A stretch of DNA of 64,000 nt from the NCBI GenBank assembly GCA_022829145.1, contig CM040748.1, forward strand, positions 285,001 to 349,000. The letters run 5' to 3'. Position numbers and translations under genes: made by a program. Of this stretch, positions 31,201 through 58,300 are shown piece after piece (within the stretch, counting starts at the first letter, position 1; each line of letters opens with the position of its first letter). Origin of the DNA: Albula goreensis (Eukaryota; Chordata; Actinopteri; Albuliformes; Albulidae). Under the pieces are notes generated by a model. The model made no database searches. It saw nothing but the letters and a program-made list of their open reading frames with translations, and was not told the DNA's origin.

Positions 31201-34200
31201 ACCGCAGACGGGTTTGTCCTGAGCAGGGTTTCCATGGCAGCACTGGCTGTGCTGCTGGCTGCAGTCTGAGCACTACCCGAGCCAAAAACATCAGGGGAAG
31301 CCTAAACAACCAGCAGAGGCACATTAGAGTGACAGGAACACAAAACAAGGAGGTACATCTACAAACACTGTGAATCTCAGCACCTCCTTCTGCTCTCTGA
31401 CCATCACAAACACCGTCAGCACATAAACATGAACACAACCGTTCCAGGTGATGTAGTAACACGTGCATTAACAGAGTATACCTGCTCTGTGTGTTTGAGG
31501 CCGTTGGGCGCATGCAGCCCGTTCTGGCTGGGTTTGGGGGTGCAGCGGACGGGTGCCGGCCGGCCCTCTTGCACACACGTCTCTGGAGCAGAGGAGCCGT
31601 TGGCTCTGGGGAGCGGCTGAGGTCGGGGGGTGGGGCTGTAGGAGGGGACGCTCCCCCCATTCTTCCCGTTTACAGTTGCAGGGAGGCGGGGCTTGGTCAG
31701 ACCGTTCTCCAGGGCGCCGCCCTCCTGGTCAGACTCCTCCGAGGACTCCTGCCCATAGGGCACCAGGAAGGTGGCGCAGCGGTTTGGGGGCGTGCCGTTG
31801 ACACGGGGCGGGCGGGGGGCGGGGAGGGCATCGGGGCGGGACACGGTGGCTGCCCGAGTTTCTGAGGTAGACTTTGAGGAAGAGGAGGAGGAAGATGAGG
31901 ACGAGGCTGAGGATGAGGGCTGCAGGTGTGAGGTGGAGGGCTGGGAGCAGCTGGGGCCACTCTGCAGGGCCGGCTGGACCTGAACGGGCCTGGCCTTGCC
32001 CTGCGCAATGGGGAAGGACAGCTTCTGCCTCTTGGCTGGCTCCGGGATCCCAGTGGGACGGCTGGTTATCTGGGGCAGGCTGGAGCTGCTGGACAGCTCC
32101 TTCAAGGAGCCGTTGCCATTGATGTGGGGAGGTTTCTGTAGGACAGACACACAGTGTTCACCGCCGCACACACAAAACCCCACACCCTCAGCCTTAAGCA
32201 GCAATACCCCTCAGACCCGCAGCCACACGACTCCTGTTTGTTTCCCAAGTATTTGTCATGTTATTCTTGAAAGGCTCAATGGTAAGTCTGTTTGGATTTG
32301 TGTGCAAGTACTCTTTTGGAGCAATGTTCGTTAATTCTACATTTCTGATCTTCAAACATTGTACAACTCGCTGTTACGTTTGTCTTAAACCATGTTTCAT
32401 TTTTGGAAGTTATTTTTTAAGGAATAATAAAGCCCAGCCGGATGCCTATCCTGCCGTTTCCCCTCCCTTTCACCACGGTCCGTTTAGTTTGCCTGTTGGC
32501 CCTCAGCATGTTTGCATGCGGCGTACCTTGCTCATGTGTGCTGGCAGCTGCGGCCCGATGAAGCCGGTGGTAGCATGGCGCGGTGCGGCGGGGCGTGGCG
32601 CGGCAGGCCGCGGGCTCAGGATGGGCCGGGGGGAGGACTGGCCGGGTGTGCGGAGGGCAGGGCTGTAGTCCCAACCGTTCTTCAGATCTGGGGACCTGTC
32701 AGCCCAAAACGGGGGGTTCTGTAAGCAGGTCTGCACTACCCAGTACCACAGCAGCCCTTAACCCAGGACCCGCAGCACCTCCCAACCCCCAGTCTGCATC
32801 ACAGACTACTACCTGAGTTTGAGTCCCATACTTTCAGTACATATTTCAACACAAAATGTAACCTCTCTCTGATAGAACTAAGCAAACAGCTAAAGCATGC
32901 TGATTAAAAGTCCTTCAATGAAAGTGGAATACTCATTATCAATACCTTGATAACCTTTTTCTGACTAAATCTGACATATGTTGGGTAAATCATCGCTGGG
33001 TATATTACATTAGGCCTGACACCGCCTGCCTGATCAGCAGTTAATCTGGGGTGATCTGCAGCACCCAAACAAGGCCGAGCGAAACTCAGAGCCTGCGGAA
33101 AGCCCGCTGTGCACAGAGGAGCACGGCCCACCTGATGTAAAAGAGAACATAAGCTTGCTGGTTGAGCACAGATCTGACATCGCTGATGGAGACCGACGCG
33201 TCGTTCATCTCGTACCACTGTCCATTGCTGGCCTGGGAGACAAGGTGAGGAAGCTTACTGCCATACACAAACACGTGCTACACATCCAGCAAACCCTGCT
33301 TATATACAGATTTAAAACTTTCTAAACATTACCAGCATTTTAGAATTAATAACCAACTAGTAGCCAAATAGTAACTTAAACTGACAAGAATGATAACACC
33401 ATTAAAATGGTTCTGCATATTTTCAAAATCAAATCAGGATTGAATTTCAGTCCAACTTTAATAACAGGATTGGAATGCGTGTGTGACGGGCTGCGTTTAC
33501 CTTTATGAAGCAGCGATAGTGGTGTGACGGGCTGGGTTTACCTTTATGAAGCAGTGATAGTGGTGTGACAGGCTGGATTTACCTTTATGAAGCAGCGATA
33601 GTGGTGTGACAGGCTGCGTTTACCCTTATGAAGCAGCGATAGTGGTGTGACGGGCTGGGTTTACCTTTATGAAGCAGTGATAGTGGTGTGACGGGCTGGG
33701 TTTACCTTTATGAAGCAGGATTGCTGGGAAGCAGTGATAGTGGTGTGACGGGCTGGGTTTACCTTTATGAAGCAGCGATAGTGGTGTGACGGGCTGCGCT
33801 TACCTTTATGAAGCAGTGATAGTGGTGTGACAGGCTGGGTTTACCTTTATGAAGCAGTGATAGTGGTGTGACGGGCTGCGTTTACCCTTATGAAGCAGTG
33901 ATAGTGGTGTGACGGGCTGCGTTTACCTTTATGAAGCAGTAGTAGTGTCCAGCATGGCAGCTGAACCCAGAGTGGACCAGCACAGCATACAGGAGGTAGA
34001 CCAGGGGCTCCCCGTGAGGCTGGGACATGAAGGGACGCATGTCCAGGTACTCCGGATAGCGCACATCCTGCAGAACAGCACAGCGGCAAACCCTCAGCAC
34101 AGACACCCTCTACTGCTCCGAGTACAAACCTGCATCCTCTTACAAACTCCCACTGCTCTGAGCAAATCAGAAAATAAGAAAATAAACCCTGTCGGACTAA

Positions 34201-37200: not shown

Positions 37201-38879
37201 CACAGGTAAGAATGTTACCAGTGAAAATGCTTGGAAAGAATAATTTGCTTTGTAATGCCAGTGCAAAGAGCCTGATACTGCAACTCACGTTTCAGCTCAT
37301 TCAGAACACCAATGGGTTTGATGACGTTTCCAGAGTTGGCGAAGACCTGGGTGATGTGATTCTGCATGGTGCACATCATACAGAACCCGGGCTCCGTACC
37401 TGCATCAGGGCAAACACACACTCAGTACATCATACAGAACCCGGGCTCCGGACCAGCATCAGGGCAAACACACACTCAGCATCAGAACCCGGCACCAGCA
37501 TCAGGGCAAACACACACTCAGTACATCATACAGAACCCGGGCTCCGGACCAGCATCAGGGCAAACACACACTCAGTACATCATACAGAACCCGGGCCCCG
37601 GACCTGCATCAGGGCAAACACACACTCAGTACATCATACAGAACCCGGGCCCCGGACCTGCATCAGGGCAAACACACACTCAGTACATCATACAGAACCC
37701 GGGCCCGGACCTGCATCAGGGCAAACACACACTCAGTACATCATACAGAACCCGGGCTCCGGACCAGCATCAGGGCAAACACACACTCAGTACATCATAC
37801 AGAACCCGGGCCCCGGACCTGCATCAGGGCAAACACACACTCAGCATATCATACAGAACCCGCCAGCATCAGGGCAAACACACACTCAGTACATCATACA
37901 GAACCCGGGCCCCGGACCTGCATCAGGGCAAACACACACTCAGCATATCATACAGAACCCGGGCCCCGGACCTGCATCAGGGCAAACACACACTCAGTAC
38001 ATCATACAGAACCCGGGCCCCGGACCTGCATCAGGGAAAACACACACTCAGCATATCATACAGAACCCGGATCCTGACACTCCTGCTCTGGCAGCTGCAC
38101 AGAGTAACACACAGGCTCGGGACCTACATGTTTTTGAATGCTCCCGGGAAAGCAGGTAGTTGGCCAGCGGAGGCGTGTAGGTGAGACACTGAAGAGCGGA
38201 GTTGAGGAAGCATGTGTTGCCAAGGTTCTGGAGTCCTGCTCCGACACGGTGAACTTGGTTCCATTTCAGGTTGAGTCGCTCTGCCGGAAAAAGAACTTTC
38301 TGGGGGACAGCAATTCCATCTCCGCTGGTCATCACCACTGCATAACACAAACAATCATTTAGGTCTTTTGAAGCAACTGTAAACAAACAGTCATTCAAAT
38401 AGGAAGGTAACTTTCAAGACTGATACATGCTGCAGATTCTCTTATACTACTTTGCAGAAACTCCGGAAAATGTTCAGACTGTCCAGACTGCAAACCTGAA
38501 AACACTGCCAAGCCTCAACATACCACAGTGAATCTCTGAGAAAAACCTGCAGTTGATCATGCAGTGCAGTTTCCAATACATTAAGAAGTATGAAGTTGTC
38601 ACAGACAGCCTTTCAGTGAGTGGAGACTGAGGGCCACTTACTCTGCTCCTTTGGCCTCTCTCCTGTGACAGCTGTGCTGCTGCTGTACAGAGCAGCCCCC
38701 GGGGTGGGGCCCGCGTAGGGGCTTTTGGTTTTGGGGGTGTCAGAGGGAGAGGACCCCACGCCCCAGCTGCTGGAGCTGCCATCCATATCTCCAGAGGTGA
38801 ACGGAGTCAATGAACCAGAGCACTTTGGCCGATCTGACTCTGGGTCAGACTTCTCTGATGGTTTGTCAACTATGGTCAT
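27975..38879 (-). CDS. usp42: Ubiquitin carboxyl-terminal hydrolase 42 (C-terminal exon unresolved)
   Basis: A cysteine protease of the USP family that removes ubiquitin from nuclear substrates; p53 and histone H2B are reported for the human enzyme. Exons run from ATG at 38879 down: 38642-38879, 38128-38337, 37289-37399, 37070-37169, 36581-36648, 36163-36233, 35811-35893, 35324-35435, 33927-34067, 33132-33232, 32527-32695, 31482-32135, 31189-31272, 30211-30393, 29359-30104, 27975/27996-28213. The start [15 protein letters not shown] resembles human USP42. The catalytic Cys box [14 protein letters not shown] is at about residue 122 and the His box [12 protein letters not shown] at about residue 372. 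The tail holds [12 protein letters not shown], a Ser-rich stretch and an Arg/Asp/His-rich domain. About 1,090 residues are seen against about 1,320 in human, so the tail is shorter or its last exon was missed. Two introns carry arrays that duplicate splice sites. Confidence 0.95.
28457..28578. mobile_element. Short Tigger-like MITE fragment
   Basis: The right end, on the - strand, reads CAGGGGGTCCTCGACTTACG next to TA, a terminus common in pogo/Tigger MITEs. The left end CAGTGTGAGTGACTTA is only weakly similar, so the element may be truncated. Confidence 0.5.
29359..30104 (-). CDS. usp42: usp42 exon 16, Arg/Asp/His-rich nuclear domain
   Basis: Encodes a charged tail full of RDR, HRH and SRD dipeptides ending [18 protein letters not shown], typical of the nuclear and nucleolar-targeting end of USP42. 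The acceptor is ggcgcag at 30105-30106 and the donor is TG|gtgagc. It is very GC-rich, so overlapping frames are open too. Confidence 0.88.
30211..30393 (-). CDS. usp42: usp42 exon 15
   Basis: Begins [20 protein letters not shown] and is open until 29986 in its own frame, but the next block is read in another frame. I end it at the strong donor GCT|GTGAGC (phase 0), giving a 106-bp intron to 30105. Confidence 0.65.
31189..31272 (-). CDS. usp42: usp42 exon 14
   Basis: An 84-nt phase-0 exon encoding a Cys/Gln/His-rich segment, [15 protein letters not shown] onward to GHQAQ. It is supported mainly by phase continuity and splice sites. Confidence 0.78.
31482..32135 (-). CDS. usp42: usp42 exon 13, low-complexity linker
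   Basis: A 654-nt exon, phase 0 at both ends. It encodes KPPHINGNG, a run of ten or so serines near 31880, [16 protein letters not shown] and Pro-rich sequence ending [13 protein letters not shown] is a diagnostic acidic motif remembered from USP42/USP36. Confidence 0.93.
32527..32695 (-). CDS. usp42: usp42 exon 12
   Basis: Encodes [20 protein letters not shown] then [13 protein letters not shown]. The NGWDY and GFIGPQLP segments match human USP42. It holds a short Pro-Arg-Ala repeat. Confidence 0.95.
33132..33232 (-). CDS. usp42: usp42 exon 11, end of USP domain
   Basis: Encodes [20 protein letters not shown] then [13 protein letters not shown], the typical USP finish with the acidic or Asn residue of the triad in WYEMND. 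Confidence 0.97.
33475..33950. repeat. 41-bp minisatellite carrying copies of a usp42 splice donor
   Basis: About eleven units start GTTTACCTTTATGAAGCAG at 33495, 33536 and so on, the last overlapping exon 10. On the - strand each unit reads CTTCATAAAG|GTAAAC, the exon's own end and donor. Confidence 0.93.
33927..34067 (-). CDS. usp42: usp42 exon 10, catalytic histidine box
   Basis: Encodes [20 protein letters not shown] through [16 protein letters not shown]. The His of AGHYY is catalytic. The donor AAG|GTAAAC is repeated about ten times in the array immediately downstream. Confidence 0.97.
35324..35435 (-). CDS. usp42: usp42 exon 9
   Basis: Encodes [20 protein letters not shown] then [17 protein letters not shown], the LxxxLxRF region of USP domains. 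Confidence 0.96.
35811..35893 (-). CDS. usp42: usp42 exon 8
   Basis: Encodes [20 protein letters not shown] plus ENAYKCT. The second CxxC straddles the next junction. Confidence 0.96.
36163..36233 (-). CDS. usp42: usp42 exon 7 (zinc-finger half)
   Basis: Encodes [20 protein letters not shown] plus LEIK. The CxxC pair is half of the USP finger zinc site. Confidence 0.96.
36581..36648 (-). CDS. usp42: usp42 exon 6
   Basis: Encodes [20 protein letters not shown] plus SR, the segment leading to the finger subdomain. Confidence 0.96.
37070..37169 (-). CDS. usp42: usp42 exon 5
   Basis: Encodes [20 protein letters not shown] and [20 protein letters not shown] is the QQDAxEFL box conserved in USP domains. 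Confidence 0.97.
37289..37399 (-). CDS. usp42: usp42 exon 4
   Basis: Encodes [20 protein letters not shown] through GVLNELK. Its first 26 nt and acceptor are copied about 13 times in the array just upstream on this strand. Confidence 0.96.
37386..38090. repeat. 54-bp minisatellite carrying copies of a usp42 splice acceptor
   Basis: About thirteen units contain GCATCAGGGCAAACACACAC and TCAGTACATCATACAGAACC. The block CATCATACAGAACCCGGGCT is the complement of the first bases of exon 4, and GCATCAGGGC is the complement of its 3' splice site. One unit is shortened to 42 bp. Confidence 0.94.
38128..38337 (-). CDS. usp42: usp42 exon 3, catalytic cysteine box
   Basis: Encodes [20 protein letters not shown], then [20 protein letters not shown] and LLSREHSKT. 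The Cys of NTCF is the nucleophile. Confidence 0.97.
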
Positions 38880-43383: not shown

Positions 43384-46300
43384 CTACAAGGGGAGAGAGG
43401 CCACAGAAGATACGATCCAATTGGCTTGACTGAAAAATTCAACTGAAGGTGCTAAATACATTAAACAGGTTGAAACATTTTCTCTTGGACAGCTAAATTT
43501 TGCCAGTGAACAGACTAACATTTGTTAATTATAAACAAATGCAGACAGTCAACTCAAAGGGACATATGTTTGGCATAACAGAATTAGAAACTAAAGGTTA
43601 ATACACTGTTTTTTAGCTATGTGTGCGGTGGTGAAAGTGGTTGTTCAGTAATAGGTCTGGTACTCTGTCTGAGTTGTTGAAGAGTTCACTCTGCAGCAGC
43701 TGGTCAGCGGTCGGTCGCATGGAGGGGTCTGTGCTGGTCAGCAGGTGGATGTACTTGGCCAGGACAGGCCAACGCTTGGACAAGACCTCTGGAACCTTCC
43801 CCTCCCTCAGCTCCCCGAGCCTCTGCACACGCTCCATCTCTGTTCCAAAGGGCTGGAAGAGCTCCAGAGCCACCACTCCAACACTGTACATGTCTGACTG
43901 TGGAGAGCAGCAAACAACACCTGAGCTCAGCATCTCACCCCACAGCACACCTGAGCTCAGCATCTCACCCCACAGCACACCTGAGCTCAGCATCCTACCC
44001 CACAGCACACCTGAGCTCAACATCTCACCCCACAGCACACCTGAGCTCAACATCTCACCCACAGCACACCTGAGCTCAGCATCTCACTCCACAACACACC
44101 TGAGCTCAACATCTCACCCCACAGCACACCTGAGCTCAACATCTCACCCCACAGCACACCTGAGCTCAACATCTCACCCCACAACACACCTGAGCCCAAC
44201 ATCTCACTCCACAACACACCTGAGCTCAGCATCTCACTCCACAACACACCTGAGCTCAACATCTCACCCCACAGCACACCTGAGCTCAACATCTCACTCC
44301 ACAGCACACCTGAGCTCAGCATCTCACTCCACAACACACCTGAGCTCAACATCTCACTCCACAGCACACCTGAGCCCAGCCTGACAGGCTCCTAAAACCC
44401 CCGGCCCCCAGTGAAACTTCGCCCCAATGCTATAAATACCTTTGAGTCATAATGTGAGCCTTGCAGCTGTTCAGGGGCAGCATACACAAACGTCCCTACC
44501 CCAGTGGTGTGCGAGGAATCTGCAAAAAAAAAACCAAAAAAACAAGAGATTCCGAATCTCAATGAGACTTCCTGGTTAAATAAAGGCAAATAAATAAAGA
44601 AATAAATAGAACACCTCTTTTACAAAAGCATGCTGTGTCAAGAATGCATTACCTTTTTATTTATTTCTTTGCTTTTACCCCTTAATCCTCTTATATGCTA
44701 TTATAGGTTTTACGTTACTTGATACAAACATAAAGATCAGGGCCGTGGCGCAGTCTGCATGCAGTGTCAGACTGCAGCGGAACAGGGCCGTGGCAGCCCT
44801 GTCTGTGGCCTCACCTCCAGCCTGTGAGCTGGGGGACAGGTGCATACCTCCAGCCTGTGAGCTGGGGGACAGGTGCATACCTCCAGCCTGTGAGCTGGGG
44901 GACAGGTGCATACCTCCGGCCTGTGAGCTGGGGGACAGGTGCATACCTCCGGCCTGTGAGCTGGGGGACAGGTGCATACGCTCATCCACAATTATGTCTC
45001 TGCAAGCCAGGCCAAAGTCGCCGATTCGCACACGGCAGTCCGGTCCATGCAGGAAAATATTTCTTGGCTGAAAGAAAACAGAATCTGTTGAGTGGCACAA
45101 CAAGACCAATTGACAGTATATATAATGTTTGAATTATATTTAATAATTTTAATCAACAATATAAACATCAGCCTATCAGCCGTGAATATTTACTTCAATT
45201 TTAATGTTGTCATGTTTTTACTTGTGTTTCTGCCAATATTTTAATAGTTGTTAATGTGATGTAATTAAACAATTGCATTTATTGAACAATTTCATGCTTT
45301 TGGTGGAGCACCAGAGCCATAGAGTTGTGATTTTCCTAATCTTGTGTAAAACAATTGGTGATGGTCCAGAATCTTATAACATCTGTTCAAAATATTCATA
45401 TTAAGAAACAATGAAGCTTCACAGAACAGAACCAGAAGGTTGAAACAAAGCTAGGGCACTGTGCTGATAATACATATTTTACTCAACACTTATACAAGCA
45501 CATATTATTTAGCATTCTGTCCACACAAATATTTTTTGAGTGGTTGAAAATATGCCGGCTAAAAAGAACAGGGTTGGGAACACAAGCTATATGGCCTTAT
45601 GTATAGTATGATTTTTCATCTGTCAATCTGCTTTTCAGTAATTTGGCTGAAAATACTATTCCTGAAGAATGACCTAAAATATAAAGTCACACAAAAAACT
45701 CAGAAAACTAAAACCATGTCTTATCAGGAAGGGCTGGGATGTGTTACTGATATTTAAACAGAAAGATTTTCTCTGCATTTGCATACATGTTGGTTGTTTG
45801 ACAAACCACAGAAGAACTCCACTTACTACCATCTCACTGGAAAAACAGGAAGTATAACTGCAGGGTGAAGATAAAGGGCGTGCGGCTGCTTGTGGTACGT
45901 CGCACAGACATTTCACAAGTCAGAGAGCTGACGGCTGGCAAAGGCCAGATAAGATAAGCCTCCAAAACGGGACATTTTCACGCATCAGCTGATAACATAA
46001 ACATGAACGCCCCACAGAGCTGGACACCCACGGACAGGGAGGCTGGAGTGGACCATAAAGTGAAGTCTGAAGTGGAGTCTACACTGGACTCTGAAGTGGA
46101 GTCTACACTGGACTCTGAACTCAGCTATTCAGTGGATTCTGACAGTGAACCCACTCAGCCCAGCAGAGATGTTGCGCTACACGATGCAATTTTGTCGGGA
46201 CATGCACCAGTGATTGGGGATATTCTGAGAAATCGCTCAGCTGATTCTCCAATCCACGACCCAGCTGGACTCCTTGGGAAAGCTCATTCAAAGGTAGAAA

Positions 46301-49300
46301 ACAGTGTAATCATTTAGCTGTATGCTTTTGTTGTGATCCTCTTCATTGATCATTTCAAACTTCTGTGGCAACGTTTTTTACTGTTAAAACATACTTAAGC
46401 TGAACAGCAGCAAAATAGAAAGGTGGTGACATTCTTAGGATTTCTTCATTGCCTGAGGAGCTCCTTTCAGATGTTCTTTGTGGTGTACCAACTTGCAAGC
46501 CTCGATTTCACAAGCCTTGCATTACATTTAACATGTTCTACAACATACTGTGTTTTGTTGCAAATAGTAAATTGGAATGACTGAATTTCTGACTGAAAAC
46601 TGACCAGTCCGACCTCACCAAGCAGTGACCTGTCTGAGGGCCGTTACTGCTCAAAACGGCCAGCTCTCGTCAGCCTCATTACCAGCTTCTGCTGATGCAC
46701 TGCTCTCTCCCCAATCAGTAAAGAGGACTCCTCAGGCAATCAGGGACATGCTAAGGCATGTGTCATGAACAAATGTTACATCATTTTAAATTGCATTTTA
46801 AAAGCTTTGTTTAAAAACTATATATGTATAATTATTTCATTAACATACTATTAATCTTGATTTGGGGGGAGTGATAACACACAGGTGATCCGGGGGGTGA
46901 TTTTAATATAAGATCACAGCTGATCTCAGAGCTGCTCCCACATAACTTAGACTAAACACAGTTTAATGCTAAAAGTTACTTCCTGTATTTGAAGAACACA
47001 ACCTAACAGATTCACCCAACCTGACTGAGCACTGTTTTGAAGACCATGAATTTTTCTTCCCTGAAAATGAATCTCTGCAAAGGGCAGAGTATTACAGTGG
47101 ACATTTTGAGCTGAAGAACATGAGTATGTGTTACTGTTAGACTCCAGGAGTGTTTGGCATGTTCTCCACCTCTCTCAGCTAGGCTTTCCTACCGGACCAG
47201 CCGTCGGCCATCCCCCACCTTCACCTCACTGCCATTCCCACCAAGGAGCAGAGCCCCAGGAGCCTCCTGCGCCCAGGTGCAGAGCCAGATAAAAGGTAAC
47301 CACTAACACCTCCTCACTTATAATACCTACTCACCCGTAACACCTATTCACCTGTGATACTCACCTTTAAAACCTACTCAACTGGATCGTCCAATCAGCA
47401 TACATAGCATTGCGTTAGGAGGTATTGCCATATCATATAACACAATAAATCAATCACATTGAAGTGTGACAGTACTGAATCTCTCCACAGGGACCAGCGT
47501 GGTGTGAATGCTGTGCACGTGCTGCTGGCTCAGTGGCCCAAAGGCGGTGTCCCCAGGCCAGAGGTGAGCAGTAGGTTTGAGTGCTCTGTGGCAGAGCGCC
47601 AGCAGCAGGCTGCGGGCTGTCTGAGGCTGCTCTGTGGATCTGGACTGGACCTTAATGCCGGGCTGGACAGCGAGAGCAGGGAAACTGCGCTGCACCTGGC
47701 CGTGCGGTATGGAGCTCTGCCCGCCGTGTCCATCCTAGCCAGCCATGGCGCCAATCTGAACACCGCCGACCGGCACGGCCTGATGCCCCTGCACATGGCA
47801 GTGAGCACGCTGAACCACGCCATTACCGCCAGCCTCCTCCAGCATGGAGCGGACCCAAACGCAGCCATGACCCGGACTGGCTCCACTGTGCTTCACATGG
47901 CTGTGATAGCCGTTATAACGGGCAACAGAGGCCGGGCTGTGGACCTGAGCTGCATCCACGCACTGCTGGAGCATGGAGCCCTGCCAGACACGCAGAGCAG
48001 GGCGGGCCGGACGGCCCTGCACGAGGCCTGCACAGCCGGACAGGTGGAGGTGGTAGACGTTCTGCTGAGCTACGGGGCCGACGTCAACGTGCAGACCGGG
48101 CTGGGGGAAAACTGCCTGTTCCTGTTCCTGGACCGCGAGGCCAACCTGCAGCGGACGGCCCTGCTGCAGGAGCTGCTGAGCCTGACCTGCCCTCTCACCC
48201 TGCGCAACTCTGCAGGGCTGCTGCCCCAGGGCCTGCTGCTCCCTACCCATCAGCACCAGACACGCACCCTGCTGCAGCTCAGCATGCAGCCGCCGCACCT
48301 GCAGCACCTGTGCAGGATTCACCTGCGGCTGCAGGGACGCCACGCCCAGCCCCACCTCAGGGCCACACTGCCCCACAGCCTGTACGACTTTGTCTACAGC
48401 AAGGGTGTAACTGTGAGGTGCGCCTCCCCTGTGAGGCACAAGCGAGTGATAGGGGAGGCGCAAGGACTGAGGACAATAGATAAATAAATATTTAAAAGTT
48501 AGTTTTGTGTTTCTGTTCTACAAAGTAGAATATATAAACTTAAAATGGTAACAGAATTACAGGGTATTGTAACACCAGCGTGATTCAGCTAATCTCATTC
48601 TAAATCGCATCCAAAGTTGTTTTCTCAGCCAAATCTTGAATCATATTATTTGTAGTCTGTTTTGCGCCTTCCCAAGAGAAAAAACACCAATAAACCAATA
48701 ACAGCAAACAGCTGGCAGTGCCTTGGATTTATTCCCCTCCCCCTTTTTATTTGGCAACGTAGAAGTTTGGATTTTCCAAAACGACATGGTGTAAACAAGT
48801 TATTTGCAAAGTGGCAAAGGTAAGGTTCGCAATTAGGATGGCAACATGATGAACCTTTTTAACCACCTCAAAAGAAAGCACCCAAAAGAGAATTCAGACA
48901 GTCAAACAGAGAGGGGATCCCAAGACAGTGCATCAGCTCCAGCCACACGGCCAGAGGCTACAAGGCCCAAACTAACAACTAACAGAGGCATTTGAGAAAG
49001 GCACTCCGTATGACAGGACAAGTAAGCGCTGGAAAGAGGTAACTGATGCAGTGACATTTTACCTGGCCAAGGATAAGATTCCCACAAAAACTATGGAAAA
49101 CAAGGGTTTCAAAAGACTGCTCAAAATAGTTGATCTGCAGTATGCAATACCCAGCCGGAAATATTTTCCCAACACAGCCATTCCACGGCTGTACTCCAAA
49201 TACCGGGACAAGATTCAACACAGCCATTCCACGGCTGTACTCAAAATGCCGGGACAAGATTCAACACAGCCATTCCACGGCTGTACTCAAAATGCCGGGA

Positions 49301-52300
49301 CAAGATTCAACACAGCCATTCCACGGCTGTACTCCAAATGCTGTGACAAGACTCAACACAGAATTCAAAACGTCCAGTTTTTTGCAACTACAAGTGGTTT
49401 ATGGTCTAGTCGCACTTCAGAACCTTACTGTCTTCCTGCAGTTTCTGAGGTTTTGTTATGCAAACATGGCATAGACATTCTTAGAACTATCGTGTTCATG
49501 TTCATAAGATCCTGCTTCAGAGCTGTAGCTTTCAATATCTTTCAGTTTTTATTTTAATGTGCTGCTATTTTAATTGCTAATTCAGCAATAAGCATGATGA
49601 GTTGTAATCCAGTTTAACGGGTCTTTTGCCTAGGGATGCCTGTTTGTGTGTGTGAGTGTGTATGTGTGTGTGAGAGAGAGTGTGGCGCCCCTGCTATGCT
49701 GTGCAGGGTGTGTGTGTCCAAATACAAATACAGCAAGGCTAACTGCAGCAGGGCTAACTGCAGCAAGGCTAACTGCAGCAGGGCTACCTGCAATAAGGCT
49801 AACTGCAGCAGGGCTAACTGCAGCAAGGCTACCTGCAGCATGGCTACCTGCAGCACGGCTAACTGCAGCAAGGCTAACTGCAGCAGGGCTAACTGCAGCA
49901 GGGCTAACTGCAGCAAGGCTAACTGCAGCAAGGCTAACTGCAAGCCCTCACTGGACACCACAGTCTCTGCTGTGTGCCACAATGAGAACTATTAAACACC
50001 ACTGGATTTACTCACACCCCTGAGATGTGAATCTGCCACAGAGCAAACACCACTGGATTTACTCACACCCCTGAGATGTGAATCTGCCACAGGCAAACAC
50101 CACTGGATTTACTCACACCCCTAAGATGTGAATCTGCCACAGAGCAAACACCACTGGATTTACCCACACCCCTGAGACGTGAATCTGCCACAGAGCAAAC
50201 ACCACTGGATTTACTCACACCCCTGAGATGTGAATCTGCCACGAGCAAACACCACTGGATTTACCCACACCCCTGAGATGTGAATCTGCCACAGAGCAAA
50301 CACCACTGGATTTACCCACACCACTGAGATGTGAATCTGCCACAGAGCAAACACCACTGGATTTACTCACATCCTTGGGGCTAAGAAGGCTGCAGAGTGA
50401 AACAGGGCTCTGCTGGCCTCTGCCGTTGGGCCATTCATGGCCATGCAAATTAGGCTTCACAATAACCACTATTGCTAAGTATTATGGCCTCTTCAAGCCC
50501 AAAATGGCACTGTGAGTATAAGTAACCTACCTTAAGGTCTCTATGCATAATTCCCTTGGAGTGGATGTATGCCACTCCTTCCAGTATGGTCCGCAGAATG
50601 CTGAACGCATGCTCTGTGTCCACACATCTGTACGGATCTGCACCTCAGAAGAAAACAAAAAATGTTAACTGCAAAATAAGATACATGTACTACAACCCAA
50701 CTGATTTTACCTTCACATACGAACTGTGATAGTAAATATACCTATCCAAGACTATTAAAAGAGGTATTTATGAGATGAAGACGTAGAACTTGAGGGCTCC
50801 AACAGTGACACAGCTGTAGCAGCTTTTAACAGTTATGTTGGGGAAATGTGCGATAGTAACATGGAAATGTAGAGACTGAAGGTTAATAAAGTCAGTTCAT
50901 GGCTGGACTGTGCTAACAGCGAAATAAGCGATTAAATCTGACATCTCTGTGTGACTGAAATGAATGAATCTGTGCTAACAAGCCTGTAATTTATAGGTGG
51001 AACAGACACAATGCCAAGTTGTATTGTTTGAGGTGCAAAGGGAAAACCAACTCTGGAAAAATCTATGGTAAATGACGGAACTTTCCTAAAGCAGTCTATT
51101 ACACGTTACAGAATGCATGCAACAAGCCAGACATGACTTCTGCAATGGCACATATGCAGTGCACATATATGAGCCAAATATCACTGCTGTATGCAGCATA
51201 CTGGTGCGCACGCATTTCCTTATTTTACCTGCTAACTCCACTCAAGCCTGAGTCACCCTCTCCTCCCACACACTCCTCTAGACTGCTCTGAAAATGAAAC
51301 CTCTCCACACAAGTATCTCACTGCAACTAGCTAAGACCTAATTCAGGAAAAATAGTGATGCAAAGAATGACAATGAAAATTGGTGCCTTTTATTGCTGTT
51401 TGTCTTCTCTCTTGTTGCAACAGAGAAAATCATATAATGTAACATGCTGTATTAGACTGGCAGTCAAATAAATACATAAACACATGAATGAAGCAAGATC
51501 CTGTCACCTGAGAAGGCCTCACCCCCTGCAGGCCGGCTGTTCCGCTCCAGGATCCAGTCTCTCAGGGAGAGGTCACACAGCTGCATCTGAATATACAGCA
51601 TGAGGTAGAACTGCCCCTGGGGAACAGAGAGAGGAACATGAGGTAGAACCGCCCCTGGGGAACAGAGAGGAACATGAGGTAGAACCGCCCCTGGGGAACA
51701 GAGAGAGGAACATGAGGTAGAACCGCCCCTGGGAAACAGAGAGGAACATGAGGTAGAACCCCCCCTGGGGAACAGAGAGAGGAACATGAGGTAGAACCGC
51801 CCCTGGCGAACAGAGAGGAACATGAGGTAGAACTGCCCCTGGGGAACAGAGAGAGGAACATGAGGTAGAACTGCCCCTGGGGAACAGAGAGAGAACATGA
51901 GGTAGAACTGCCCCTGGGGAACAGAGAGAGGAAGATGAGGTAGAACTGCCCCTGGGGAACAGAGAGAGGAACATGAGGTAGAACTGCCCCTGGGGAACAG
52001 AGAGAGGAACTTGAGGTAGAACTGCCCCTGGGGAACAGAGAGGAACTTGAGGTAGAACTGCCCCTGGGGAACAGAGAGAGGAACATGAGGTAGAACTGCC
52101 CCTGGGGAACAGAGAGAGGACCATAGGCCTTCCTGATCTTTTCTATTCCAGAACCTGTAGCAATACATAATTTCAACAGGACACACACCTGGTTCTGTTT
52201 TACATACCTCACTGCTTTTTACTGGTATTTGAAATGACTGTGCTGTTTAATGACACTGGTGAGGGTGCCAAATAAATGCAATGGGATGGTGGGTGTTGGT

Positions 52301-55300: not shown

Positions 55301-58300
55301 TAATTTATTGGTCTGTTGCTTGCATTAGACCATTGTTTGCGTTGTTTTGTTTTCCTCTGGTTGTTGCATTAGTGGCGTTTGAGGCAGGAAAGAATGAGCA
55401 GGGTGGATACCTTGAAGACTCGGCCATAGGACCCTTTGCCAAGCGCACATATTTCCTCAAACTCACTGATGTACCGTGATGTCTGTGCTTGGAACAGACC
55501 GTCTTTGGATCTGAGATAGCCGGAAAACAATGTAAGTATGAGTCAAGCAACCAAACACAGGGTTCCCACGCTTACAGATGCTCCTTCACACAAAAGATCA
55601 TATAAGAAATCCTGATGGCACACAGCAAACAATGGAAGTCTAAAGGACAGAGAAAGAGTGCCTGCTAGTCACAGCACAACAACAGAGACAGCGTACAGAA
55701 TATATGATTAATAAACACATACACCTACCTTAATGTAAAGCTCTGGCCATCTGCATTCAAATACCTATGATCCTACAAGCAATAAAAAAAATACTGTCAG
55801 GTTTTTATACAGAGGACTGAGATAACGCACTGTTAGCATACAGCACGTCCCTGTGAGAGTTGCCTGTATAACACACAGTTAGCATGTAGCATGTCCCTGT
55901 GAGAGTCACCTGTGTAATGCAGTTTTAGCATGTGAAATGTCCCTGTGAGAGTTACCTGCATAATGCACTATAAAACTGTAGCACGTGCCTGTGGTAGCTA
56001 CCTGTATAATGCACTGTGAGCCTGTAGCAGGCATCTGTGGGAGTTACCTGTATAATACACTGTGAGCCTGTAGCATGCACCTGTGGGAGCTACCTGTATA
56101 ATGCAGTGCTAGCGTACAGCATGCACCTGAGAGAGTTACCTGGGGGAACAGGGAGGTGCTAGCAGCGTGCAGGAGCTCAGTAAATGCTCGGTTATGCTGC
56201 AGCCTCACTGTGCTGAACTCGTCGCTGATCGCCAGGGGAGACAGCAGGTTCATGCCTGCTAAGCGCTGACCAATCACTGAGGAAGCAATGAGCATGTCTG
56301 ATTACCATCCAATGACATGAAATACCAAACTTCTGACTAAAATCCAGACTAAAAAACATTAATACATACAGAGTTTGATGCATAACAAAAGTGTCATTTC
56401 ACACATACAGCTCCTTCTCTTGAGCAGAATCTGTCTGGAGCAAACATTTTTAACTCAACATTCCCACTCTTGGAATCCCATGTTAAGTTTATTCTGCAAT
56501 ATCATTATGGGATCACGTCACCAAACACACTGCATCACTACAGACAGCGATGTAAACAACCATAGTTACCACATCAGCGCACTTCCTCATAAGTCTGACA
56601 GGAAATGGTTTGGGTGAGACACAGGAAACGCTCACCTTTGAACAGCATGCGCGAGCGGTGCGGGTCCTTCTCATACACAAAGCACAGATGTTCCAACAGG
56701 GAGCCCAGCAGCAGGTGGTTTGGGATGGCAGCGGCAAACTCCTGGATGGAGGGGTAGTGTTTGCCATGCGGCCGCACATCCCCGGCCTCCACACAGTCAG
56801 AGGCTGTATTTACGCGGGGACGACACACCAGGGATTCATCAGACACAGTTCACAATTCAGTTCCTTAGTTTGATGAGCAAGCTTAAATATCATTCATTTA
56901 TACAAATGGAGTCATTACCCATACATGAGAGACATACTCATACATAAGAGACATACTCATACATGAGAGACATACCCATACATGAGAGACATACCCACAC
57001 ATGAGAGACATACCCATACATGAGAGACATACCCATACATGAGAGACATACCCATACATAAGAGACATACTCATACATGAGAGACATACCCATACATGAG
57101 AGACATACCCATACATGAGAGACATACCCATAAAACGGGAGCAGTGAGTGGAGGGGCAGCAGTCCACAGAGGCAGCTGGGACAGAAACACCCCCTCATTC
57201 CTGTCTGACATGTTCAAGACCTAATCTCTTTAGTTGTTATTCACTAACTTTAAGACCAGGGTCACTACCATCACATGTGTCCCCTTGGTTGTTCACTAAC
57301 TTTAAGGCCCAGGTCTGTGATGTGCACTATGCACATCAGGGCACATGGGAAGATTCCGGGAGGAAGTGAACAGACTGAGTTGAGTTTTGGGCTTGGATAC
57401 CAGTGCAGCACTCTGCATTCACCCTGCATTATGGTCAGTCATGTGGTACTTTAAATTCAACCCTGTGCATTTATGTCCTGTTTCAATTGTTGCATTACTT
57501 GTTTTTCCTCAAATGGTTCTTAATTCCACATGCAAACAAAATAGCCATTTCATAATTGAAATATTAACAGGAAGAAAACTTCAGCAGTTACAATTAAATT
57601 TTCTGACTTCTTTATTAATGTATTAACAAGAGAAAAATGGCCATTCTTACCTTCAGCAATAACTTTGGCAATCAGCCTAAAATATCTTTATTCTCAGGAT
57701 CCATTTTGCATGAAAATAAACTTCCAATTCAACAATAACCCACAGTTGAATATTTCAGAAGCTTTCTGCTGGAGCCTCTTGTTTATGTGTGGGGTGTGTT
57801 CAGGGGTCAGGCTTATCGGTCTGAGACACTAACGCCCCCTCCACCCCACACACGTAACAGCACCATGGGAGACTGGTAAAGAAATGTAAAATCTGTAAGA
57901 TACTCATATTTTTGATGTATGTGACATTACATATGGCATTACATATGCTCTGAAATGTGTATTAAATGCTTCAGAATTGTGTATGCACATTTAATAACCC
58001 CACTGCTGATCATGTTAAAATGTCTAATTATTTACACACTTTATGTGTTTTATTTTGAAATAAAGCACACACACACTCATATAATATTTGAATATAAATA
58101 TCTTACAATAAACATTGTGCCTTAAAAATATTGACTTAGTCTCCATAGTCTCCACAGCCTTTGTGATATAATGAGTATGTATTATGTTAATTGTAATAAT
58201 ATGTACAATTGTAATTGCACAGCATAAAAAATATTCTTAAAACAGGTGGATTCTAAAGAAAATCATTATTCTCCAACATGTTACATTTTAATCTAAACAA

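What the first reader, a model, noticed from the sequence alone, without database searches (positions are those of the whole stretch)
44814..45067. In-frame 33-bp repeat with a donor in each unit inside the HRI kinase activation segment
Exon 12 carries DFG and then five 11-residue units, [11 protein letters not shown]. Six candidate donors (five GTATGC, one GTGAGG at the end) all leave in phase 1, so exons of 88, 121, 154, 187, 220 or 253 nt all join in frame to SSHTTGVGT. The kinase could thus vary in activation-loop length by 0-55 residues, both by splicing and by repeat-number polymorphism, with Ser/Pro-rich units that could be phosphorylated.
Basis: partly seen in the sequence, partly recalled or inferred. 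Interest (0 to 1): 0.87.

Follow-up and report, generated by a model that had tools for sequence, protein, structure and literature searches.

The report
Minisatellite at an HRI kinase exon's end
In an animal genome, a young 33-base tandem repeat has copied the end of an exon of a stress-sensing kinase gene five times, so the kinase's activation loop could have several lengths, but the gene lies in a region packed with such repeats and no transcript yet shows which lengths are made.

Summary
On the minus strand, the eif2ak1 (HRI) exon that holds DFG (45067..44815) ends in five 33-bp units ([11 protein letters not shown]); all six candidate donors are phase 1 and each gives an open kinase frame. 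Tandem duplication itself makes the inner donors, because each junction fuses GGAG to GTATGC. One unit gives 26 residues from DFG to the conserved Thr, against 25 in human HRI; five give 70.

The setting makes it fairly ordinary. Minisatellites cover 20% of the surrounding 264 kb near a contig start, against 0-1.6% in five interior 10-kb stretches. Four other arrays in the window also sit on splice sites, no more than uniform placement predicts, and donor motifs are not enriched in array units. Repeats at exon-intron boundaries that are spliced out or retained are known in human genes (PMC2812944, passages). Most likely: a tolerated expansion in a disordered loop, read mainly to the last donor. 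Splicing, polymorphism and function are unshown.

The parts
44815..45067 (-). HRI (eif2ak1) exon with DFG, 253 nt if read to the last donor, phase 0 in and phase 1 out
44815..44979 (-). Array of five 33-bp units, each [11 protein letters not shown] in the exon frame
44974..44979 (-). Candidate donor 0, AGC|GTATGC, very weak (-2.55 bits, U1 pairing -2.1 kcal/mol)
44941..44946 (-). First inner donor GAG|GTATGC (3.32 bits, -5.8); gives one unit and a human-like loop
44908..44913 (-). Second inner donor GAG|GTATGC
44875..44880 (-). Third inner donor GAG|GTATGC
44842..44847 (-). Fourth inner donor GAG|GTATGC
44809..44814 (-). Last donor GAG|GTGAGG, strongest (6.41 bits, -10.2); 28 of 31 window donors score lower
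44440..44519 (-). Next HRI exon, (D)[26 protein letters not shown], with the conserved HT..VGT; acceptor TTTTTTTTTTGCAG|AT
33481..33947 (-). Comparison: 41-bp array on a USP42 donor (AAG|GTAAAC); 11 donor copies, only the first precedes an in-frame stop
37373..38070 (-). Comparison: 54-bp array on a USP42 acceptor (TGATGCAG); the 7 upstream acceptors tested lead to a stop within 7-10 codons, the last does not
51599..52124 (-). Comparison: 38-bp array on another HRI acceptor; 14 acceptors, 6 in frame counting the last
55822..56142 (-). Comparison: 46-bp array beginning at another HRI donor (CAG|GTAACT)

Best explanation
A young minisatellite, in a minisatellite-dense region near a contig start, has tandemly duplicated the last 33 bases of the HRI exon that carries DFG. 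Shown: the copies, their frame, the donors, the dense setting. Inferred: the ancestor had one unit, flanked as GAGC[GTATGC...GGAG]GTGAGG, and duplication across the shared GT fused GGAG to GTATGC at each junction, putting a row of weaker donors in front of the strong original one. Inferred: the strong, intron-proximal last donor takes most splicing, so the main protein has five units and a loop about 44 residues longer than a one-unit, human-like form, while the inner donors give minor, shorter, in-frame forms. Inferred: it is tolerated because this part of the HRI loop is disordered and the critical Thr lies in the next exon. It is read as a tolerated by-product of repeat expansion, not an evolved switch.
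For: Array, unit register and the GT shared by unit and downstream flank. Six of six donors in frame. Last donor 6.41 bits and -10.2 kcal/mol against 3.32 and -5.8 for the inner ones. Loop count 26 residues for one unit against 25 in human. Human HRI activation loop 461-495 described as unstructured (PMC13181343, passages). 114 arrays cover 54,012 of 264,000 bases locally, against 0-1.6% in 5 of 5 interior stretches. Donor motifs not enriched in array units: 8 of 114 against 8.4 in shuffles. Advantage of the intron-proximal of two competing donors is recalled, not from a call.
Against: No transcript was available. In USP42 the conserved frame requires the array copy nearest the exon core, not the far one, and its forced donor scores 3.13, slightly below the inner HRI donors, so weak inner donors can serve. 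The Pkinase profile scores fall with length: 81.5, 75.0 and 70.7 bits for zero, one and five units, and the five-unit match splits in two. If the last donor is used, this is the only array of the window's tested ones to cover far more than 33 bases of a modelled exon.
Confidence: 0.55

Rival explanations
1. Self-buffered array: the first inner donor (44946) is the one used. The protein keeps one unit and a human-like loop, and units 2-5 are intron. Copying an exon end together with a donor leaves the protein unchanged whatever the copy number.
For: One unit restores the human loop length. In the two USP42 arrays the copy next to the exon core must be used to keep the conserved frame. The other four splice-site arrays cover 3-28 bases of their exons by the coordinates; this one would cover 33.
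Against: The last donor is about 3 bits and 4.4 kcal/mol stronger, the 253-nt exon is not unusually long (another HRI exon modelled here is 363 nt), and the donors of the USP42 array are nearly equal in sequence, so that comparison lacks the strength difference seen here.
Confidence: 0.3
2. One reading: a regulated or polymorphic ladder of activation-loop lengths that tunes HRI.
For: Six of six in-frame donors; graded donor strengths; HRI's activation loop is heavily phosphorylated and central to activation (PMC12235045, passages).
Against: The ladder arises automatically from tandem duplication; arrays are abundant here without regard to donors or frame; no evidence of use, polymorphism or conservation.
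Confidence: 0.12
3. Assembly error: the copy number or the array is wrong.
For: Near-identical units, and no reads could be checked.
Against: Chromosome-scale contig of 40.8 Mb; the array is only 165 bases; the GCC/GCT variant orders the units.
Confidence: 0.03

Closest known systems
Variable internal tandem repeats at exon-intron boundaries of human segmental-duplication genes (De Grassi and Ciccarelli 2009, PMC2812944; outline and passages seen)
   Same: Minisatellite of about 30-bp units, about four copies, at an exon-intron boundary; such repeats can be spliced out or kept in the exon, and 66% of the intron cases also have transcripts that keep the repeat.
   Different: There supported by transcripts and by paralogues; here one sequence without RNA, in a single-copy gene and inside a kinase activation loop.
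Tandem duplication of AGGT-containing exon segments (Rogers model; ATP2A1; 24-bp arrays in two fission yeast genes), as told in PMC4974935 (passages seen; Hellsten et al. not held)
   Same: Each unit junction here reads AG|GT, made by tandem duplication; in the yeast genes introns run across several copies.
   Different: Here the copies adjoin an existing intron and lengthen or shorten its start; no new intron is needed.
Rainbow trout irak3: first 15-17 nt of exon 5 repeated four times just upstream of exon 5 (PMC6763605, passages seen)
   Same: Exon-edge repeat in a fish gene, like the acceptor arrays of USP42 and HRI here.
   Different: Acceptor side and intronic; not the donor side, and not a loop of an active kinase.
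Human HRI activation loop (PMC12235045 and PMC13181343, passages seen)
   Same: Long loop between DFG and a conserved HT..VGT; one unit gives the same length within one residue.
   Different: Human HRI has no tandem repeat in the loop; five units would make it 45 residues longer than human.

Membership tests
eIF2alpha kinase HRI (EIF2AK1) | Kinase C-lobe closest to EIF2AK1 rather than to PERK, GCN2 or PKR | tested here: met
   E 9.2e-48 to human EIF2AK1, next PERK at 3.3e-20
eIF2alpha kinase HRI (EIF2AK1) | Activation-loop Thr equivalent to human T488 kept | tested here: met
   HTTGVGT in the next exon, aligned to HTSRVGT
eIF2alpha kinase HRI (EIF2AK1) | Heme-regulated eIF2alpha kinase activity | not testable with these tools
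   needs protein
Minisatellite | Head-to-tail units of 10-100 bp, several copies | tested here: met
   33 bp, 5.1 copies, 99% matches
Minisatellite | Copy number varies between individuals | not testable with these tools
   one match in one assembly
Repeat at an exon-intron boundary that alters splicing | Array overlaps a splice junction | tested here: met
Repeat at an exon-intron boundary that alters splicing | Transcripts with and without the repeat | not testable with these tools
   no RNA data on hand
Intron gain by AGGT duplication | AGGT at unit junctions | tested here: met
   GGAG|GTATGC at four junctions
Intron gain by AGGT duplication | A new intron absent from the ancestral gene | not tested
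   Not needed to explain the locus: the copies adjoin an existing intron; no related gene was at hand to compare

The most novel reading that the evidence does not exclude
In this species HRI exists as a ladder of activation-loop lengths (26 to 70 residues from DFG to the critical Thr), set by inherited copy number and by donor choice, and loop length shifts the threshold of the integrated stress response between individuals or tissues.
Probability: 0.1. Interest if true: 0.75.

Novelty: new member of a known kind. Interest (0 to 1): 0.36.

Why it matters
If the long form is made, it is a natural test of how much extra length the activation loop of an eIF2alpha kinase can carry. If the array is spliced out, it is a clean example of how copying an exon end together with a donor protects a protein from repeat expansion. 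Either way, the five splice-site arrays in two neighbouring genes make this a good place to study how exon edges withstand minisatellites.

Tried and rejected
Splice-site arrays as a special class: not supported as a strong claim. 5 of 26 merged arrays overlap one of 68 modelled junctions. For the 23 arrays inside modelled gene spans uniform placement expects 7.7 (P of 5 or more = 0.93); for the 14 in USP42 and HRI alone it expects 5.6 (P = 0.74). Only under a null that lets an array cover at most 35 exon bases is 5 above expectation (1.6, P = 0.018). That null was chosen after seeing the data and takes the HRI exon to end at 44947; if the last donor is used, this array covers about 165 exon bases and does not fit it. 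The exon list left out the ankyrin gene, the USP42 C-terminal exons, a probable small HRI exon and the HRI coiled-coil exon; a few junctions are up to 8 bases off, without changing which arrays overlap one.

Donor motif enrichment in array units: none at thresholds 4, 5 and 6 bits (8, 2 and 1 of 114 against 8.4, 3.8 and 1.7 in shuffles); the inner donors of this array (3.32 bits) lie below those thresholds. At 3.3 bits or more, 13 of 228 unit strands carry a donor (no shuffle control). Bias of periods to multiples of three: none.

Retrocopy of eif2ak1 as a natural cDNA record: none among 5 matches, three being the native exons and two weak matches elsewhere (the search scores only its best candidates). 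The array elsewhere in the genome: one match, the window itself (that search skips very common words). Acceptor-like AGs inside the units: by arithmetic they would leave 7- or 14-nt pieces that shift the frame. AIMP2 probe: no match shown at E below 0.1. Paper searches: 8 answered; none of the listings showed a tandem repeat in an HRI or other kinase activation loop, and the one aimed at this had 0 papers with all four terms.

Full report
What is there. The window holds CYTH3 (+), USP42 (-), eif2ak1/HRI (-), an ankyrin-repeat gene inside an HRI intron (+; the name ankrd61 is recalled) and the start of PMS2 (+). CYTH3, USP42, HRI and PMS2 were placed with recalled human probes and by reading frames. 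The HRI exon with DFG runs from 45067 to 44815 on the minus strand. Its last 165 bases are five copies of a 33-bp unit with one silent difference between units. Human HRI is the best solved relative of the one-unit spliced stretch (9rhh, E 9.2e-48; next PERK, 3.3e-20).

Frames. The exon is phase 0 in and phase 1 out. The six candidate donors give exons of 88, 121, 154, 187, 220 and 253 nt, and 6 of 6, joined to the next two exons, read without a stop to base 43614. The split codon is Asp at the inner and last donors and His at the first. From DFG to the equivalent of human T488 the count is 15 residues for zero units, 26 for one and 70 for five; in human it is 25 (DFG 461-463 and T488 in PMC12235045, passages). 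One unit is therefore the likely ancestral state, by inference, since no gene of a related species was at hand. The Pkinase profile accepts all three lengths tried, with 81.5, 75.0 and 70.7 bits for zero, one and five units; the score falls with length.

Donors. With a recalled donor matrix and computed U1 pairing, the first site scores -2.55 bits and -2.1 kcal/mol, each of the four inner ones 3.32 and -5.8, the last 6.41 and -10.2. Of 31 donors picked for modelled exons, 28 score below the last, 10 below the inner ones and 1 below the first; two PMS2 picks look misplaced. The USP42 donor that must be used to keep the conserved frame scores 3.13, so the inner HRI donors are within working range.

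How the donors arose. In register the array is GAGC, five times GTATGC...GGAG, then GTGAGG. The unit and the flank after it both begin with GT. Tandem duplication therefore puts GTATGC behind GGAG at every junction and makes a donor each time. No selection for donors is needed to explain them.

Setting. The window lies 285 kb from the start of a 40.8-Mb contig of a 932-Mb assembly. In the joined 264 kb around it (5,000 of its bases read N), 114 arrays of period 15-120 and at least three copies cover 54,012 bases, 20%. In 10-kb pieces, 26 of 26 local pieces (the last 4 kb of the window not among them) show 5-43% coverage. Five of five interior stretches from four contigs show 0, 1.6, 0, 0 and 0%; the first 5 kb of contig 8 itself shows none and no telomere array. 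At 300 kb from the start of three other contigs, coverage is 1812, 1388 and 0 of 6000 bases. A subtelomeric minisatellite zone is the natural reading, but it rests on few stretches.

Sister arrays. Four other arrays of the window sit on splice junctions: a 41-bp donor array and a 54-bp acceptor array in USP42, a 38-bp acceptor array and a 46-bp donor array in HRI. In the USP42 donor array, reading past the first donor meets a stop before the second; in the USP42 acceptor array, 7 of 7 upstream acceptors tested lead to a stop within 7-10 codons. The HRI 38-bp array has 14 acceptors, of which 6, counting the last, keep the frame. No frame test was made for the 46-bp array. Five arrays on junctions is not above uniform placement (7.7 expected, P 0.93); it is above only a null, chosen afterwards, in which arrays may cover at most 35 exon bases (1.6 expected, P 0.018). 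Donor motifs are not enriched in array units, and open frames are common in them (153 of 246). The coincidence of array, frame and donors needs no special cause.

Which donor is used. Strength and the recalled advantage of the intron-proximal donor favour the last; the USP42 arrays and the human loop length favour the copy nearest the exon core. I put 0.55 on the last donor as main with minor shorter forms, 0.30 on the first inner donor, 0.12 on a ladder with a regulatory role and 0.03 on assembly error. The activation loop of human HRI is described as extended and unstructured (PMC13181343, passages), which would let extra residues be tolerated. Its critical Thr lies beyond the array in all forms.

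Known or new. Repeats at exon-intron boundaries, kept or spliced out, are described for human genes (PMC2812944, outline and passages). Duplication of AGGT segments and the multi-copy yeast cases are told in PMC4974935 (passages). A repeated exon start upstream of a trout exon is in PMC6763605 (passages). One search aimed at a tandem repeat with alternative donors in a kinase activation loop found 0 held papers with all its terms. I file this as a new member of a known kind, in an unusual place.

Noticed in passing
51599-52124 (-): A 38-bp array with 14 copies of an HRI acceptor and the first 18 exon bases; 5 upstream acceptors would add 186-447 nt in frame and open, a second possible source of HRI length variants, in the kinase insert region.
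   Followed up: partly
33481-33947 and 37373-38070 (-): Two USP42 arrays on one donor and one acceptor of the catalytic domain; the conserved frame needs the copy next to the exon core.
   Followed up: partly
55822-56142 (-): A 46-bp array starting exactly at an HRI donor (CAG|GTAACT) and running into the intron.
   Followed up: no
43917-44375: A 30-bp array of about 15 copies ending some 20 bases upstream of the acceptor of the next HRI exon.
   Followed up: no
46058-46119 (+): A 24-bp repeat of 2.2 copies (VESTLDSE) inside an open frame at the start of the nested ankyrin gene.
   Followed up: no
48976-49361 (+): An open frame that looks like a transposase fragment (label recalled, not searched) with a 46-bp array inside it.
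   Followed up: no
C8:185001-449000 of the genome, around the window: Minisatellite coverage of about 20% near the contig start against near zero in five interior stretches; two of three other contig starts sampled are also rich.
   Followed up: partly
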